Shown: piece after piece, positions 12,915-25,266 of the stretch | Layout: each line of letters begins with the position of its first letter | Numbering within the stretch: position 1 is the first letter of the stretch | Program-made: the position numbers and the translations under genes | Notes under the pieces: model-generated | The model's input: the letters and a program-made list of their open reading frames with translations, nothing else | The model's database searches: none | What the model was told of the DNA's origin: nothing | DNA from: an uncultured Verrucomicrobiota bacterium | GTDB taxonomy: Bacteria > Verrucomicrobiota > Verrucomicrobiia > Limisphaerales > UBA9464 | Assembly: GCA_903896505.1 (NCBI GenBank) | Contig: CAITXU010000244.1 | Span: forward strand, 1-61,460 | Direction of reading: 5' to 3' | Length of the DNA: 61,460 bases

Positions 12915-13529
12915 CCCCTGATGTTTACCACTCGTATGGGCCTTGACAATCCGGTGACGTTTATACCTCTTTGAATCGTTCGCGGCCTAAGTCGCACCGC
13001 CTTCCTACGGTGGGACCCGGGGGACCCAAGTTTGTGCCCTGTTGCACAATCGGGGCGTAGGTGAATCGGGAGACCGGTTTGCCAAGTCACTTCGAAGACC
13101 CAGCCCGTCAGCTAACCTCGTCGGCATTTGGAAGGGCTTACCCGTAGTGCCACCTTTGTGATGGCCGTGCGGGCTCCCTGATGATGGTTCGCTCGCTTTC
13201 GTGTGCCGAAATCATTCGGCACTTGGAGGAGTTCGTTGGGCATGCCCATGCCCAATGCGCTCGCGAAGCAGCTGGTTGATGTGTTTCGGGTATGAGTCAA
13301 CAGGGTGTTACGGGTTTCCTCCGCCGGATTTTCATCGGCAAATCGAAGGATTTGGGTGACCAAAAACTTTTTCATCAATACAAATTACATGTCCCCCCTG
13401 TTTCAAACAACCGACGCAAGACCGCCAGTCCGGTTTGGCGGCTTAGGGACAGCGTGAGCATGCAAATTACCTGTCCCTTTGTCTTTGCATCGGGCCAAGG
13501 CGGAGAAACTTCGTTGAAGTTTTGCCGTG
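12915..13529. other. Gene-free region with hairpins and two RAYT-linked motifs
   Basis: This is 615 bp with no credible gene. It holds two adjacent perfect hairpins: GTGCCGAA-ATCA-TTCGGCAC at 13203-13222 and TTGGGCATG-CC-CATGCCCAA at 13236-13255. A RAYT-motif doublet follows at 13381-13482. An 88-codon minus-strand frame (13112-13378) was not accepted as a gene. Confidence 0.6.
13381..13482 (+). repeat. RAYT-linked motif doublet around a hairpin (REP/BIME-like unit)
   Basis: Two direct copies lie here. Copy 2 is CAAATTACATGTCCCCCCTG(T) at 13381-13401 and copy 3 is CAAATTACCTGTCCCTTTGT at 13463-13482. Between them, CCGCCA-GTCCGGTT-TGGCGG (13422-13441) forms a hairpin. Copy 3 carries the same 14-bp core found upstream of both RAYT genes. 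The unit lies just past the 3' end of pheS. It looks like a non-autonomous element mobilised by the RAYTs; that is an inference. Confidence 0.65.
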
Positions 13530-17432: not shown

Positions 17433-18443
17433 ATGCGACTGGCACGGCTGAAGGTGGAGGGTTGTGGGTATTATCACTGCATCTCGCGGGTGGTGGATCG
17501 GCGGTTCATCTTCGAGGCGGATGAGAAGGAGCAGTTTGTCCACTGGATGACGGCATATGCCGGCTTCTGCGGATTGCGGGTTCTGACCTACTGCATCATG
17601 TCCAATCATTTCCATATTCTGGTGGAGGTGCCCTCGCGTCCTGAAATCTTACCAGACGAGGAGGAGTTGTTGACGCGGTACGGGTTGATTCATGGGGAGG
17701 AGGCGGTAGAACGGATGCGCTCGGAGATGGCCTCCTGGCCTGCGGAGCAGCGGAGGGAATGGTTTGACGGGCTGCTGGGGCTGATGTGGGACCTGAGCTC
17801 GTACATGAAGCTGGTGAAGCAGCGTTTTTCGCAGTGGTACAACCGGCGGATGAATCGCAAGGGGACGTTGTGGGAGGAGCGCTTCAAGAGTGTGGTGGTG
17901 GAGGGAAGTCGCGAGGCGCTGGCGAGGGTGGCGGCGTACATTGATCTGAATCCCATCCGGGCGCGGTTGGTGGAGGACCCGAAGGATTACCGCTGGAGTG
18001 GCTATGCCGCGGCGGTGGCGGGCAAACGGGTGGCCCGGGAGGGCATCGGCGCGATCATTCACCTCAGCGCAGGGGCGGAGGGAACCTTGACCGAAGCGAT
18101 GGCGACCTATCGGATGTGGGTGTTTGGGGAGGGGTTGGTGGAAGGGATACCGAGTCCGGATGGACCGGCGATACGTCCCGGGATCGCACCGGAGAAGGTC
18201 CGGGAAGTACTGGCAGCCAAAGGAAAGCTGAGTTGGGGGGACTATGTGCGTTGTCGGGTACGGTATTTTACCGACGGAACGGTGATAGGAAGCCGGGCCT
18301 GGGTGAACGAGGTGTTTGAGCAGCATCGGCAGCGCTTTGGGGCCAGGCGCAAGGATGGGGCGCGGAAGTTTCGATTCCTTGCTGACCAGACCTTGTTTGG
18401 GATGCGGGATTTGAAAAAACTTCCGGTGATGGTCCAGCCGTAA
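17433..18443 (+). CDS. REP-associated tyrosine transposase (Y1/RAYT)
   Basis: This 336-aa protein has YYHCISRVVDRRFIF, EKEQFVHWMTAYAGFC, the HuH motif in CIMSNHFHILVEV, and the helix carrying the catalytic Tyr, ARVAAYIDLNPIRARLV, followed by DYRWSGYAAA. These are the signatures of REP-associated tyrosine transposases (PF01797), which nick single-stranded REP hairpins. The C-terminal 130 residues are extended compared with IS200 TnpA, as usual for RAYTs. The start has only a weak upstream purine run. The motif copy at 17377-17396 lies upstream. Just after the stop, GGGGA and TCCCC (about 18455-18476) can pair and may be the right end. It is intact and could be active. Confidence 0.92.
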   Translation: MRLARLKVEGCGYYHCISRVVDRRFIFEADEKEQFVHWMTAYAGFCGLRVLTYCIMSNHFHILVEVPSRPEILPDEEELLTRYGLIHGEEAVERMRSEMASWPAEQRREWFDGLLGLMWDLSSYMKLVKQRFSQWYNRRMNRKGTLWEERFKSVVVEGSREALARVAAYIDLNPIRARLVEDPKDYRWSGYAAAVAGKRVAREGIGAIIHLSAGAEGTLTEAMATYRMWVFGEGLVEGIPSPDGPAIRPGIAPEKVREVLAAKGKLSWGDYVRCRVRYFTDGTVIGSRAWVNEVFEQHRQRFGARRKDGARKFRFLADQTLFGMRDLKKLPVMVQP

Positions 18444-20058: not shown

Positions 20059-20176
20059 CGGCAGGTGGAGGTTATGGAGGAGTTCCCTTGGGTTCAACCA
20101 TGACTGTCGTCCTTCCGGGAACTTCGGTGGGTGGGTCTGCTTGGATAGCCAGTTTTTCCGGTGCATGATGGCGTCC

Positions 20177-21337
20177 ATGCGGACGATCTACATGGATTAT
20201 AACGCCACGACCCCTCTCGATTCCGAGGTCCGCCGTGCCATGGAACCCTATTTTGAAAGGGTGTGGGGAAATCCCTCGAGTGTTCATGCCATTGGTCGGT
20301 CCGCGAGATCCGCACTGGATGAATTTCACTACCGACTCGCCGCCCTTTGGCGATGCAGACCCAGTGAGGTGGTATTCACCAGCGGTGGAACCGAGTCCAA
20401 TAATCTGGCGGTCATCGGGGCAGCCAGGCTCCGGGCAGACCGTGGTCGCCACCTGGTTGTTTCGCCCATCGAACACCCTGCCGTTCGGGATGCGTTTCGC
20501 CACCTCGTTCGGAAGGAGGGCTTCGAATTAACGATTCTTCCAGTGGATTCCTTTGGTCAGGTTTCGACCGAAAGCGTTATCCAGTCGCTGCGACCGGACA
20601 CCATCCTGGTTTCAGTGATGGCGGCCAACAACGAGGTTGGAACCGTTCAACCAGTGGCGGAAATCGGTCGGATTTGTCGGGAGCGGAGCATTTTGTTCCA
20701 CACGGATGCAGTACAGGCGTTTGGAAAACTCCCTTTTGTCGACATCCACCAATTCGAAGCCGACTTGGTGCCGGTCTGTGCCCACAAATTTTACGGCCCC
20801 AAAGGTGCGGGCGCATTGTTCATTCGATCACCGTTGCAACCTCTTGCCTTGCAGATGGGTGGCGGACAGGAGAATGAACGGCGTGCTGGAACCGAAAATC
20901 TCGCCGCCATCGCCGGATTGGTGGAGGCATTCGAGCGGTTTGTCCCGCGCCCGGTGTTCGATCCAGAAACTCTGGCGCACTGGACTGGCCAATTGGGTTC
21001 AGCTGCCGCCCAAATTCCAGGGGTCATCCTTCGGGGCCATCCAACGCAAAGATTGCCGAACACACTGGCATTTACCGTCGAAGGTGCCGACAGCATTGCT
21101 TTGATGGCGGCACTCGATTTGGAAGGCATCTGTGCTTCCAGTGGTTCAGCCTGTTCAGCGGGCTCGTTGGAGCCCAGCCATGTTTTGGAGGCAATGGGTG
21201 TATCGGAGGCCGAGGCGAATGCTTTGGTCCGTCTCTCTTTGGGGCGGGAAACCACAGAACTGGAGGTTGAATCCGTGATCAGCCATCTCCCACCAGTCAT
21301 CAACCGCCTCCGATCCGTCTCCTCAAGAATTCGCTGA
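20177..21337 (+). CDS. Cysteine desulfurase, NifS/IscS family
   Basis: This PLP enzyme removes sulfur from cysteine to give alanine and a persulfide for Fe-S cluster or thio-cofactor assembly. The 386-aa product starts MRTIYMDYNATTPLD, the family's typical start, so the ATG at 20177 is preferred to the upstream TTG frame. It has TSGGTESNN, IEHPAV, AANNEVGTVQPV, HTDAVQAFGK, the PLP lysine in CAHKFYGPKGAGALF, GGGQENERRAGTEN, and the active Cys in CASSGSACSAGSLEPSHVL. The long Cys loop fits group I (IscS/NifS). No iscU or other suf/isc gene is adjacent. It is divergent from the PP2C regulator with about 118 bp between them. Confidence 0.94.
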   Translation: MRTIYMDYNATTPLDSEVRRAMEPYFERVWGNPSSVHAIGRSARSALDEFHYRLAALWRCRPSEVVFTSGGTESNNLAVIGAARLRADRGRHLVVSPIEHPAVRDAFRHLVRKEGFELTILPVDSFGQVSTESVIQSLRPDTILVSVMAANNEVGTVQPVAEIGRICRERSILFHTDAVQAFGKLPFVDIHQFEADLVPVCAHKFYGPKGAGALFIRSPLQPLALQMGGGQENERRAGTENLAAIAGLVEAFERFVPRPVFDPETLAHWTGQLGSAAAQIPGVILRGHPTQRLPNTLAFTVEGADSIALMAALDLEGICASSGSACSAGSLEPSHVLEAMGVSEAEANALVRLSLGRETTELEVESVISHLPPVINRLRSVSSRIR

Positions 21338-21423: not shown

Positions 21424-22236
21424 TCAAGTTGCGGGAGACACCGGGCCGGTTCCGGTTCGGAAGGGTGAAGCCCGGGCAAGCTCATTGAGCGGTGCATTTT
21501 GGAAGGCCAGGAAATCCGGCGTTTCCAATCGATGGCAACCTTGAAGCGGAGTTCTGACGAGATGCTTCAGTTCGGGCAACTGGTTGGACCAGGAAAGCCC
21601 GTTGAAAAACTCCACACCGTCGAACTGTGTTTTGTAAAGTGACGACTCGGTATAGCAGGTTCCCAGATGAAGATGGCGAAATCCAAGAGCCGAGAACTGT
21701 TCGACTGAGCGGGTCATGAGGCCGATGCCCAGATGCCGCCATTCCGGGGCGGTGTCGTAAAAGGCATAGTAGTAGTAGGCCACCGCGTGAGGCTCCAAAT
21801 AGAGGAGGGCAACGGCCAATTCGCGGCCGGAGGCTGTTTCTACCAGGCGCAGAATATGGCTGACCACCGGCGAGGACAGCAGCCGGTCCAGCCGTTGTAG
21901 ATGCATCACGCCGGGGCCGAAGCTCTGCTCGGCCCAAGTCAGCCATCGCTGACGGTCCCCAGGCAATTCACGCCATTCATGGCGGGGAAGCAGTTGGAGT
22001 TCGGTATCCGAAAGTTTTCGTAGAATCCGCCGGTTTTCGGAATTTGGTTTCCAACCGGGCAACGGGACCCGCACCTGGCGGACCAAGTAATAGCGGTCCA
22101 AATTCGGGGAACTGGGAAGGAACCCGGCAGCGAAGGCTGTTGCGGGAGTCTCGCCTTTTTCAAGAAACCCCCAGACCGCGAACGGATAGACGTAATGGGC
22201 GGGATCGGGAACGGCCTCTGAAAAAAGCAGTTTCAT
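21424..22236 (-). CDS. ATE-like aminoacyl-tRNA-protein transferase relative (GNAT fold)
   Basis: This 270-aa protein resembles bacterial arginyl/leucyl-tRNA-protein transferases (ATE/Bpt). Similar parts are GFLPSSPNLDRYYLVRQVRVPLPGWKPNSENRR (compare the ATE 'RPxCxxCxxCxPxRxxxxxFxxSRSQRR' segment) and the GNAT-like core YYYYAFYDTAPEWRHLGIGLMTRSVEQF with HLGTCYTESSLYKTQFDGVEF. The N-terminal Cys cluster of true ATE enzymes is missing. It is the last gene of a three-gene operon; its ATG overlaps the alr stop by 4 nt. True ATE adds Arg or Leu from tRNA to protein N-termini. Here the acceptor is unknown, and the operon suggests a small peptide or amino-acid conjugate. The assignment is from motif pattern only. 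Confidence 0.7.
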   Translation of the reverse strand: MKLLFSEAVPDPAHYVYPFAVWGFLEKGETPATAFAAGFLPSSPNLDRYYLVRQVRVPLPGWKPNSENRRILRKLSDTELQLLPRHEWRELPGDRQRWLTWAEQSFGPGVMHLQRLDRLLSSPVVSHILRLVETASGRELAVALLYLEPHAVAYYYYAFYDTAPEWRHLGIGLMTRSVEQFSALGFRHLHLGTCYTESSLYKTQFDGVEFFNGLSWSNQLPELKHLVRTPLQGCHRLETPDFLAFQNAPLNELARASPFRTGTGPVSPAT

Positions 22237-23465
22237 TGGAACCGACCGGAAGCCGTTGCCCTGGCCGTTTCCGTTCCGAGGTAGACGCGTGGAAGCCGGC
22301 TTCTCCAGCCCACCAACACGTCATAGCTCACGCTCTTCTTGAGGCGCGCCACGTCGTGGACGCAAATTTCGAGTTGTCCCTGGCGTCCCAGCAGAACCGC
22401 CTCGCTACCCACATCGGCTGTGGGGATTCCGGTCAGGTCGACCATCAACGCATCCATGGCCACCCCGCCCACCAACGGTGCGCGGCAGCCACTCACCAGG
22501 ACATGTCCTTCGTTTCGAACCCGTGGGAAACCGTCTCCGTAACCTAATGGAATCACCCCAATTCGCCGCCGTTCTTCAGCCACGAAGCGCATGCCATATC
22601 CGACCGAGTCCCCCATTTCCAGGTGCTGCACTGCTGAAATTCGGGCTTTGACGCTAAGGACCGGTGTCAGTCCGTTCAATTGTCGACAGACCTGCGACGG
22701 ATAGACCCCATGAGCCAGAAGGCCGATCCGGACCATGTCGAAGTGGGCCCCCGGAAGGTCGAGAAACCCACCGCTATTGCAAAGATGCCGTGTCTTCGGG
22801 CGGATTCCATTCGCTTCGAGACCCGACACCACTCCTTGGAATCGGTCGATTTGAAGGCGTGCAAACGTTTTGTCCAATTCGTCGCTTTGGGCGAAGTGGC
22901 TGAGAACGCCGGCCCATTCCAGGTGACGGAGTCGAGCCAGGGCAGTTATCCACTGGGCCGCATCGCGCCAAGAGAAGCCAAACCGGTTCATGCCCGTGTT
23001 GATCTTAAGATGCACTGGAAGTGGACGGCCCAGTCGCTGCGCACATGCGTCCCATTGTTGAGCCAGCGCCACCGACCCGATGCACGGAGTCAGGTCCCGA
23101 GCTGGCAACCAGGGGAGCTCTTCGGGCGTTCGTTCACCAAGCAGAAGTATGGGGGCGGCTATTCCAGACTCCCGAAGCTTTATGGCCTCCTCCAGGGTAT
23201 AGACCGCGAGATGATCAACCCCGTTGGCCAGAGCCACCTGTGCGGCTTGGATCGCCCCTTGTCCGTAGGCCTCGTCCTTCAAGACGTAAAGCAACCGCAC
23301 GGAGCGTGGCAATTCCTGCCGGATGATTTGGAAATTACTGGCCAAGGCGTTCAGGTCCACCTCGACCCAAGCCGGACGCAAAGGAAGCGCCCTCGTTTCG
23401 GATGGAACGTCAAAACCGGCCGTGGTTGGCCAGGCACCACCACTTTCCTGTTCCAGGGTGCTCAT
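22233..23465 (-). CDS. alr: Alanine racemase family protein
   Basis: This fold-type III PLP enzyme interconverts L- and D-alanine. In the 410-aa product the PLP lysine lies in LLYVLKDEAYGQG (usual VVKANAYGHG). LKINTGMNRFGFS, RHLCNSGGFLD, MVRIGLLAHGVYPS, GDSVGYGM with the second catalytic Tyr, IGVIPLGYGDGFPR and MDALMVDLT follow in the expected order. Several positions around these motifs differ from standard Alr (KDE for KAN, GGVAMD for GRVSMD), so the substrate may not be alanine. The ATG at 23465 overlaps the upstream stop as ATGA; a start 6 codons earlier is possible. It sits between the ATP-grasp and ATE-like genes. A second, canonical alr may exist elsewhere. Confidence 0.87.
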   Translation of the reverse strand: MSTLEQESGGAWPTTAGFDVPSETRALPLRPAWVEVDLNALASNFQIIRQELPRSVRLLYVLKDEAYGQGAIQAAQVALANGVDHLAVYTLEEAIKLRESGIAAPILLLGERTPEELPWLPARDLTPCIGSVALAQQWDACAQRLGRPLPVHLKINTGMNRFGFSWRDAAQWITALARLRHLEWAGVLSHFAQSDELDKTFARLQIDRFQGVVSGLEANGIRPKTRHLCNSGGFLDLPGAHFDMVRIGLLAHGVYPSQVCRQLNGLTPVLSVKARISAVQHLEMGDSVGYGMRFVAEERRRIGVIPLGYGDGFPRVRNEGHVLVSGCRAPLVGGVAMDALMVDLTGIPTADVGSEAVLLGRQGQLEICVHDVARLKKSVSYDVLVGWRSRLPRVYLGTETARATASGRFQ

Positions 23466-24742
23466 GGATTTCCCGGGGGCCACAAAGAGTCACCCACATC
23501 CGTCCGAAAATAGCTGCCGACCGACCGGATGCGGCGGATGTTGGAGTAAGCGTTAGAGATGGCCTGCGGTAAGGAGGAACCCAGCGCGGTCACATCAGCA
23601 ATCCGGTGTCCGGTCGCTTCCAATGTGCCGTCGGCACCTTTTTCAACCTCCTGCCACCAGATGTCACAAGTGGGGGTGCCTTGCAATTGGACAGGGACCC
23701 GCGGCCCTGTCAATTGAGTGAACGGATAGCCGTATCCCGCCAGTGTCAGACTGCACCCGAATTCTGTCTCCGGATGCCACTCGACCTTCAACGGTTGATT
23801 CCGCGTACAACCCACCACCGTGTCGAAGAGGTTGGCGAGCATGCGGAAAATCATGGGTCCACTGGTGACGCCCAGGCGGACGTTATATTCGAGGACATGC
23901 CATCGATTCTCATGGTGCATGGCCGTGACCTGCACCGGTCCGTGGAACCCACTTTCCCGAAACCATGGCTTGAGCGGCCAGAGTAGTTCCCGGGCGAGCC
24001 CGTATTTGTCTCCAGGGTCCTGCTCGACCAAGCCCCCAAGCGGAGCACCGGCGACAATTCCCAGGTTTCCGTCGAACGCCCGCTTGTACTCCTGATTGGT
24101 CACCAGAGAATAGACTTCGCCGTCGCTGACCAATGCAATGTGTCCGGCTTCGCGCCGCCCCAGATATTCCTGGAGAAAAATGCCCTCGGAATCGTCCAGC
24201 CGCGGCAGCCACGCAAGGGTATCCCCCGGCGATTCGCAAATGATGGTGTGAATTGGGCTGGTGGGAGAGCAGAGCGGATTCTTGATCACCCAGGCTCGTC
24301 CCTCCCGCCGGACCAAGGCCTCGGCCTCCTCTCGCGTCGGCACCAGGACCGATCGAGCAAAGGGAACCCCATACCGCAGGCAAAGGTCCCGCGCGAAATC
24401 CCGTTCACGCTCAAGCCGAAGGGCTTCCCCAATGGGGCAGAGCAGGGGCGGTTGGAGTTCCAGAAATTCGTCCGTCCATGGCTTTAGCGCCCATTCGATA
24501 GACATGGGAACCACCACATCGGGTTGGAACTCCCGCAGCAGGAGGCAGGGGTTGGGCATTTCGTCCACCGTCACGACCGTACCCTCCAGCCGGGGCCCAT
24601 GATGGCCATAATTCCGGGTGAGGTAGGTCACCGTTTCGACGCCCTGAGCGCGCAGGCATCGCGTCGCAGCCTGGGCAAAAACACCAATTCCCAACACCAA
24701 GGCGCGCTTTTTGCCGTATGTTTCCGATCCGGAAGTCATCAA
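23462..24742 (-). CDS. PurD-like ATP-grasp ligase
   Basis: This 426-aa protein has an N-terminal Rossmann-like domain (KRALVLGIGVFAQAATRCLRAQG; VVPMSIEWAL), an ATP-grasp core (RDFARDLCLRYGVPFARSVLV; RAWVIKNPL; GIFLQEYLGRREAGHIALVSDGE; NQEYKRAFDGNLGIVAGAPLGG; WHVLEYNVRLGVTSGP) and a C-terminal PurD-type domain (ADVTALGSSLPQAISNAYSNIRRI; YFRTDVG). This is the domain order of GAR synthetase, PurD, but the segments that bind phosphoribosylamine are not recognisable. ATP-grasp enzymes join a carboxylate to an amine through an acyl phosphate. As first gene of the operon with alr and the ATE-like gene, it probably ligates an amino acid. Start at 24742 or 24739. Confidence 0.8.
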   Translation of the reverse strand: MMTSGSETYGKKRALVLGIGVFAQAATRCLRAQGVETVTYLTRNYGHHGPRLEGTVVTVDEMPNPCLLLREFQPDVVVPMSIEWALKPWTDEFLELQPPLLCPIGEALRLERERDFARDLCLRYGVPFARSVLVPTREEAEALVRREGRAWVIKNPLCSPTSPIHTIICESPGDTLAWLPRLDDSEGIFLQEYLGRREAGHIALVSDGEVYSLVTNQEYKRAFDGNLGIVAGAPLGGLVEQDPGDKYGLARELLWPLKPWFRESGFHGPVQVTAMHHENRWHVLEYNVRLGVTSGPMIFRMLANLFDTVVGCTRNQPLKVEWHPETEFGCSLTLAGYGYPFTQLTGPRVPVQLQGTPTCDIWWQEVEKGADGTLEATGHRIADVTALGSSLPQAISNAYSNIRRIRSVGSYFRTDVGDSLWPPGNP

Positions 24743-24852
24743 CCGGCGTCACGCTAGGCTGGGTCTGGCTGTTTGAAAAGAAACGGTTCGTACATCCGAT
24801 CTGTTCGCTTCCCGCTTGTCGTTCCCCTTCGAAAGCGAGAGGTTTACTCCCC

Positions 24853-25266
24853 GTGGAATCGCTGAGTTATCGGATCGGCAACAATCTCGACCTGGATGCC
24901 GTGCTCGATTTGTATGAAACATCGACTTTGGGTCAACGACGCCCGATTCATGACCGCGACCGGATGGCAAGCATGTTGCGGAATGCGAATTTGGTGGTGA
25001 CGGCTTGGGACGGTGAGCTCCTGGTGGGCATTGCTCGGTCCGTGACCGATTTCGCTTACTGCACCTACCTGAGTGATTTGGCCGTGCGCCAGTCCCATCA
25101 ACGCCAGGGGATCGGTCGGGAGCTGATCCGGCGAACCCGGGAATTGGGTGGCGAGGCCACCGTCATCCTGTTGAGCGCTCCTGCCGCCACTGGTTACTAT
25201 CCCCGATTGGGCCTACAGCAACACCTGTCGGCCTGGACTTTACAACCCACCAGCACTCTTCAATAG
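24853..25266 (+). CDS. GNAT family N-acetyltransferase
   Basis: This 137-aa protein starts at a GTG at 24853 with GAGAGG upstream; the frame is open to 24718 but that part would overlap the divergent ATP-grasp gene. The GNAT core is clear: VVTAWDGELLVGIARSVTDF, YLSDLAVRQSHQRQGIGRELIRRTRELG (acetyl-CoA pyrophosphate loop QRQGIG) and ATGYYPRLGLQ. It resembles small YhbS/PA4794-type acetyltransferases. It is divergent from the ATP-grasp/alr/ATE-like operon with about 110 bp between starts, so a shared promoter region and a related job are possible but not shown. Confidence 0.85.
   Translation: MESLSYRIGNNLDLDAVLDLYETSTLGQRRPIHDRDRMASMLRNANLVVTAWDGELLVGIARSVTDFAYCTYLSDLAVRQSHQRQGIGRELIRRTRELGGEATVILLSAPAATGYYPRLGLQQHLSAWTLQPTSTLQ

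What the first reader, a model, noticed from the sequence alone, without database searches (positions are those of the whole stretch)
21424..24742. Operon of PurD-like ATP-grasp, alanine racemase and ATE-like transferase
Three minus-strand genes are joined by 4-nt ATGA overlaps at both junctions (23462-23465 and 22233-22236), so their products probably act together. The family mix is odd: a PurD-shaped ATP-grasp ligase, an amino-acid racemase with changed motifs around its PLP lysine, and a GNAT-fold relative of arginyl-tRNA-protein transferase. Together they could make or modify a peptide or amino-acid conjugate using a D-amino acid and possibly aminoacyl-tRNA. I know no described pathway with this set. 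The divergent GNAT gene may belong too.
Basis: partly seen in the sequence, partly recalled or inferred. Interest (0 to 1): 0.78.

Follow-up and report, generated by a model that had tools for sequence, protein, structure and literature searches.

The report
Conserved ligase–racemase–tRNA-transferase module
Three overlapping genes, for a purine-enzyme look-alike ligase, an amino-acid racemase and a relative of the enzyme that adds amino acids to proteins from tRNA, are kept together in many lake and soil bacteria and probably build an unknown D-amino-acid conjugate.

Summary
In detail: three minus-strand genes (window 24739-21424) joined by two 4-nt ATGA overlaps. They encode (1) a PurD-fold ATP-grasp ligase that is not PurD (a true purD lies elsewhere in the genome; PurD signature motifs are replaced); (2) an alanine-racemase-family enzyme with all catalytic residues, in a clade of its own; (3) a double-GNAT protein whose model matches arginyl-tRNA-protein transferase ATE1 (Z 17.2), then MprF, FemX and streptothricin-type tRNA-dependent ligases. 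The set is conserved well beyond the genus: of 80 ligase loci from other genomes, 69 also hold the racemase and 44 hold all three, across Verrucomicrobiota and KSB1-labelled MAGs. Where the transferase is unlinked, 11 of 14 genomes still encode it. The divergent GNAT gene is genus-restricted and does not belong. In one complete genome the trio racemase coexists with a separate ordinary alr. Best model: the racemase supplies a D-amino acid, the ligase couples its carboxylate to an unknown amine, and the transferase adds an amino acid from tRNA. Substrates and product are inferred. No description of this set was found in the papers held. New variant of a known kind (amidoligase plus tRNA-dependent ligase chemistry).

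The parts
23462..24739 (-). ATPG: PurD-fold ATP-grasp ligase (425 aa from ATG 24739; the ORF also opens at TTG 24742)
   Evidence: Pfam GARS_A/GARS_C above cut-off; TIGR00877 purD 89.6 bits against a cut-off of 288; AF2 pLDDT 87.5, PurD fold Z 38
22233..23465 (-). ALR: alanine-racemase-family PLP enzyme (410 aa), distinct trio-associated clade
   Evidence: TIGR00492 348 bits against a cut-off of 168; only Alr found in this genome; separate clade from 13 ordinary Alr of relatives
21424..22236 (-). ATEL: ATE1-like double-GNAT, predicted aminoacyl-tRNA-dependent transferase (270 aa)
   Evidence: sub-threshold ATE_C and arginyltransferase hits; AF2 pLDDT 88.6; human ATE1 Z 17.2 over 251 residues
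23462..23465 (-). 4-nt ATGA overlap, ATPG stop / ALR start
   Evidence: sequence
22233..22236 (-). 4-nt ATGA overlap, ALR stop / ATEL start; the same overlap in 20 of 43 related loci
   Evidence: sequence

Best explanation
The three genes form one enzymatic module that makes a small, ribosome-independent, peptide-like conjugate containing a D-amino acid. Proposed order: ALR racemises L-alanine (or a similar amino acid) to the D form. ATPG, working like PurD, activates the carboxylate of that amino acid with ATP as an acyl phosphate and couples it to an amine X that is no longer phosphoribosylamine. ATEL, working like ATE1 or FemX-type GNAT ligases, then transfers an aminoacyl group from aminoacyl-tRNA to the free amino group, giving aa-(D-aa)-X. 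Shown here: the families and folds, retention of the ATP/Mg and PLP catalytic residues, replacement of the PurD substrate motifs, and the genetic linkage and co-occurrence. Inferred: D-alanine as the racemase product used, the order of steps, tRNA dependence, the nature of X, and that the product is a metabolite rather than a modified protein or cell-wall precursor.
For: Operon with two ATGA overlaps. Of 80 ATPG loci from other genomes, 69 also hold ALR and 44 hold all three (counts), 61 of the 69 ATPG-ALR pairs lying within 200 nt on one strand. Where ATEL is not next to ATPG, 11 of 14 genomes encode it elsewhere, against 2 of about 385 phylum genomes outside the ATPG-bearing ones; at least five of those unlinked ATEL sit next to ALR. 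Pairwise divergence is correlated (ATPG-ALR r 0.94, ATPG-ATEL 0.88). No other neighbour is conserved. ATPG: PurD fold Z 38, ATP-site Lys and E-x-N kept, but GGREHA, NTGGMG and RFGDPET replaced; 51 columns fixed differently in the two families. ATEL: ATE1 Z 17.2, then MprF, FemX and Sba18/Sbb17 aminoacyl-tRNA-dependent peptide synthases, above the acetyl-CoA GNATs. Invariant K202 falls at FemX-Wv Lys305 if the alignment end is ungapped (role of Lys305 from PMC12945691).
Against: ATEL also occurs without ATPG and ALR: in 8 of 35 family genomes, in two near-complete genomes of the class (G227, G239) and as a distant homologue in family f35, so it can act on something else. No dedicated tRNA synthetase, transporter or tailoring gene is conserved nearby. 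The donor could still be an acyl-CoA. ALR is the only Alr found in this genome and may simply feed the cell wall. The co-occurrence tests are not corrected for phylogeny, and most genomes are MAGs.
Confidence: 0.42

Rival explanations
1. The module modifies a macromolecule rather than making a free metabolite: ATEL adds amino acids to protein N-termini (like ATE1 or Bpt) or to a peptidoglycan precursor, and ATPG with ALR adds a D-amino acid branch, like the D-aspartate ligase plus aspartate racemase pair of enterococci.
For: The closest fold to ATEL is ATE1, a protein N-terminal transferase. ATP-grasp ligases with D-amino acids and FemABX GNATs build peptidoglycan cross-links (PMC2922099). High sequence conservation (ATPG median identity 0.61) fits a core cell component.
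Against: A separate arginyltransferase-like gene is in the genome at C240 (115 bits, below the curated cut-off). ATEL has no match to the ATE_N cysteine domain. No murein gene is conserved beside the trio.
Confidence: 0.23
2. ALR is the ordinary cell-wall alanine racemase of these bacteria, and the ligase and transferase are neighbours of unrelated or only loosely related function.
For: It is the only Alr found in this genome and in most trio genomes of the family, a Ddl is present, and all Alr catalytic residues are kept.
Against: In the complete genome G179 the trio ALR coexists with a separate ordinary alr; G004 and G049 also have two. Trio ALR forms its own clade and is lost together with ATPG, while Ddl stays. 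Linkage to ATPG and ATEL persists across phyla.
Confidence: 0.15
3. The racemase acts on an amino acid other than alanine, so the conjugate contains, for example, D-serine or another D-amino acid.
For: Trio-specific fixed differences from the order's ordinary Alr close to catalytic motifs (D64, E111/R112, W166, S194-E196, G289, R293, A339); VanT serine racemase models also match strongly (301 bits, below their cut-off).
Against: TIGR00492 alr is the best model and well above its cut-off; Tyr381 (the Alr Tyr354 position) is kept.
Confidence: 0.18
4. The ATP-grasp protein is just a divergent PurD.
For: Whole-length PurD fold, GARS_A and GARS_C domains.
Against: A true purD at C183 scores 478 bits against a cut-off of 288; ATPG scores 89.6. 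The R[LF]GDPE signature used to recognise real PurD (PMC3261824) is RLGVTSGP in ATPG, and GGREHA and NTGGMG are lost.
Confidence: 0.02

Closest known systems
PurD (phosphoribosylamine-glycine ligase, GARS)
   Same: Full-length fold (Z 38), ATP-grasp Lys and E-x-N metal site, GARS_C domain
   Different: 20-24% identity; GGREHA, NTGGMG and RFGDPE motifs replaced; coexists with a true PurD; linked to ALR and ATEL
Alanine racemase Alr (TIGR00492)
   Same: Score above the curated cut-off; PLP Lys63, Arg161, His190, Arg246, Tyr290, Met337-Asp338 and Tyr381 positions kept
   Different: Separate clade about 35% identical to the order's ordinary Alr; KDxAYG instead of KADAYGHG; dedicated operon partners
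Arginyl-tRNA-protein transferase ATE1 and bacterial Bpt
   Same: Double-GNAT fold over 251 of 270 residues; N-R-R and YK-x-x-F motifs shared
   Different: About 14% identity, P0003 below the ATE_C gathering score, no ATE_N cysteine domain; operon with a ligase and a racemase
GNAT aminoacyl-tRNA-dependent natural-product ligases (DhpH-C, VlmA, PacB, BD-12 Orf11, Sba18) and FemABX/MprF
   Same: Fold class; probable equivalent of the FemX/DhpH-C catalytic lysine; such ligases also share clusters with ATP-grasp ligases (argolaphos AlpC/AlpF/AlpO, PMC8976061)
   Different: ATEL is nearer ATE1; the module has no visible scaffold-making genes and is spread like a core gene, not like an antibiotic cluster
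D-aspartate ligase (ATP-grasp) plus aspartate racemase of Enterococcus (own knowledge)
   Same: Logic of a racemase feeding an ATP-grasp ligase with a D-amino acid
   Different: Different ATP-grasp subfamily and racemase class; no ATE-like partner

Membership tests
PurD | Score above the NCBIfam purD cut-off | tested here: not met
   89.6 bits against 288; the genome's true purD scores 478
PurD | R[LF]GDPE signature (PS00184) and N-terminal GGREHA | tested here: not met
   RLGVTSGP and GxGxF in place of them, alignment of 30 ATPG with 11 PurD; criterion from PMC3261824
PurD / ATP-grasp | ATP-grasp fold with ATP-binding Lys and metal-binding E-x-N | tested here: met
PurD | Makes GAR from PRA and glycine | not testable with these tools
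   needs purD complementation
Alanine racemase | Score above TIGR00492 and Pfam cut-offs | tested here: met
   348 bits against 168
Alanine racemase | PLP lysine, catalytic tyrosine and the other active-site residues | tested here: met
   invariant K63, Y67, R161, H190, R246, Y290, M337, D338 in 34 sequences; Y381 fixed in the 25 trio sequences
Alanine racemase | Sole source of cell-wall D-alanine | tested here: inconclusive
   sole Alr found here, but relatives with Ddl lack any Alr and G179 has two
ATE/Bpt arginyl(leucyl)-tRNA-protein transferase | ATE fold | tested here: met
   ATE1 Z 17.2, 251 aligned residues, rmsd 3.8
ATE/Bpt arginyl(leucyl)-tRNA-protein transferase | Score above ATE_C and NCBIfam arginyltransferase cut-offs | tested here: not met
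   18 against 25 bits; 27 against 205 bits for P0003
ATE/Bpt arginyl(leucyl)-tRNA-protein transferase | ATE_N cysteine-rich N-terminal domain | tested here: not met
   no ATE_N match in P0003 or in any of the 38 members
FemABX-type GNAT aminoacyl-tRNA ligase | Catalytic lysine at the FemX Lys305 position | tested here: inconclusive
   K202 invariant and aligns by the end offset; residue pairing not printed
FemABX-type GNAT aminoacyl-tRNA ligase | Uses aminoacyl-tRNA as donor | not testable with these tools
   needs biochemistry

The most novel reading that the evidence does not exclude
A widespread, previously undescribed pathway in Verrucomicrobiota and other bacteria in which a PurD-derived ligase and an ATE1-like tRNA-dependent transferase together build a conserved D-amino-acid-containing conjugate of core (not antibiotic) function.
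Probability: 0.4. Interest if true: 0.8.

Novelty: new variant of a known kind. Interest (0 to 1): 0.63.

Why it matters
It points to an uncharacterised metabolite or modification kept across a large group of uncultivated freshwater and soil bacteria, made by three enzymes whose relatives serve purine synthesis, cell-wall synthesis and protein N-end tagging. The set is small enough to express whole, so the product could be looked for directly. It would also warn annotation pipelines that 'purD', 'alr' and 'arginyltransferase' calls in these genomes can be wrong, and the alr-less relatives with Ddl raise the question of where their D-alanine comes from.

Tried and rejected
Divergent GNAT gene (24718-25266) as a fourth member: found in only the three genomes of the genus among 303 loci, rejected. 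Cysteine desulfurase-like gene 20141-21337: conserved there only within the genus. An ABC transporter cluster beside some ATPG loci: reading the neighbourhoods showed unrelated ABC and other genes, rejected. D-amino-acid transaminase as an alternative D-alanine source: no genome passes the TIGR01121 cut-off, and the 201-bit hit of this genome is IlvE-like, so unresolved. phmmer of ATEL against PDB sequences gave only antibody chance matches. Anti-phage defence models: no hits. Paper searches for the gene set returned nothing relevant; the 2009 amidoligase survey (PMC3268129) is not held, so a prior mention there cannot be excluded.

Full report
What is there. The three ORFs lie at the stated coordinates on the minus strand. 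ATPG stops at 23462 and ALR starts at 23465; ALR stops at 22233 and ATEL starts at 22236, each with an ATGA overlap. ATPG probably starts at ATG 24739. No tRNA gene lies in the window and no Rfam family in the trio.

Families: the ligase. ATPG carries GARS_A and GARS_C above the Pfam cut-offs but scores 89.6 bits against the purD cut-off of 288. The genome has a true purD on another contig (C183), 478 bits. Aligning 30 ATPG with 11 PurD from the same order shows 42 columns fixed to the same residue and 51 fixed to different residues. The ATP-site lysine and the metal-binding E-x-N are kept; GGREHA, NTGGMG and RFGDPET become GxGxF, VAGAPLGG and RLGVTSGP. Loss of the GDPE signature has been used before to exclude PurD-like proteins from being real PurD (PMC3261824). 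The AF2 model (pLDDT 87.5) has the PurD fold over its whole length, Z 38 with about 20% identity.

Families: the racemase. ALR passes the alr cut-off by a wide margin (348 against 168 bits) and keeps all catalytic residues. In a tree, the trio-associated ALR (65 sequences) separates from 13 ordinary Alr of related genomes.

Families: the transferase. ATEL has only sub-threshold hits to ATE_C, Acetyltransf_6 and arginyltransferase models. Its AF2 model (pLDDT 88.6) aligns with human ATE1 over 251 of 270 residues (Z 17.2), then with MprF, FemX and the streptothricin-type peptide synthases Sba18/Sbb17, all aminoacyl-tRNA-dependent; acetyl-CoA GNATs come lower, near Z 10. Profile comparison with the genome's own arginyltransferase-like protein gives 96% probability over 152 columns. 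The invariant lysine K202 would fall on FemX-Wv Lys305, the catalytic lysine (PMC12945691), judging from alignment end points; this pairing is inferred.

Conservation. In 58 genomes of the order, ATEL is in all 35 genomes of the family and in five other families; ATPG is next to an ALR where contigs allow. Among the other families of the order, ATPG and ATEL occur together in five, ATPG alone in one, ATEL alone in none and neither in 17 (Fisher p 0.0002, not corrected for phylogeny). A scan of one genome each for 84,980 species found 160 relatives of ATPG, of which the best 80 were kept: 69 of these also have ALR and 44 have all three (counts), a lower bound because many contigs end nearby. 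Record titles include Verrucomicrobia subdivision 3, Opitutia and KSB1 MAGs. ATPG-ALR are within 200 nt on one strand in 61 of 69 cases, and the 4-nt ALR/ATEL overlap recurs in 20 of 43. In 14 genomes with ATPG but no ATEL beside it, 11 have ATEL elsewhere, against 2 strong hits in about 385 phylum genomes outside those with ATPG (Fisher p 3e-17, not phylogeny-corrected). At least five of the unlinked ATEL sit beside ALR. Pairwise divergences correlate (0.94, 0.88, 0.87), although shared species history contributes. No other neighbour is conserved beyond close relatives; the divergent GNAT is confined to the genus.

Is ALR the cell-wall racemase? It is the only Alr found here. But the complete single-contig genome G179 has the trio ALR and a separate ordinary alr, G004 and G049 also have two, and eight family genomes have neither ATPG nor ALR yet keep Ddl. 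Incompleteness alone would give 8 or more such genomes of 35 with p 0.01, and 5 of 7 in one genus with p 7e-5, so some losses are probably real. No genome passes the D-amino-acid transaminase cut-off. So ALR may feed both pathways in this genome, and that refuter is only half met.

Mechanism. The model that uses all three chemistries is: ALR makes a D-amino acid; ATPG activates its carboxylate and joins it to an amine, as PurD joins glycine to phosphoribosylamine; ATEL acylates the remaining free amine from aminoacyl-tRNA, as DhpH-C, Orf11 and FemX do (PMC12945691). ATP-grasp and GNAT ligases are known to share natural-product clusters (argolaphos, PMC8976061), and the general idea of such amidoligase systems is published (PMC2922099). 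Shown: families, folds, residues, linkage. Inferred: substrates, order, product. Because ATEL exists alone in some genomes, it may have an older function that the ligase and racemase joined.

Limits. Most genomes are MAGs with possible mis-binning (for example L177, labelled Gammaproteobacteria). Gene calls in neighbourhoods used a simple codon-bias caller. The literature search covers open-licence papers only. First-look sensitivity of the genome search is imperfect, so absences are less certain than presences.

Noticed in passing
G008, G009, G010, G014, G021, G023, G027, G034 and order genomes G037, G048, G051, G055: Genomes with a clear D-Ala-D-Ala ligase but no alanine racemase of the Alr family, and no D-amino-acid transaminase above cut-off; their D-alanine source is unexplained.
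   Followed up: partly
12974-13141 (+): c-di-AMP riboswitch (ydaO/yuaA leader), 41.7 bits, above its gathering score.
   Followed up: no
20141-21337 (+): NifS/IscS-type cysteine desulfurase-like gene downstream of the trio on the other strand, conserved there only in the genus.
   Followed up: partly
24718-25266 (+): Divergent GNAT acetyltransferase gene whose listed start overlaps the start of ATPG; genus-restricted, true start probably further downstream.
   Followed up: yes
17433-18443 (+): ORF that reads like a REP-associated Y1 transposase (judged from sequence only).
   Followed up: no
L262 8463-9227, L263 8262-9032, L264 162-926: A distant ATEL-like protein family without ATPG or ALR beside it, in another family of the same class.
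   Followed up: partly
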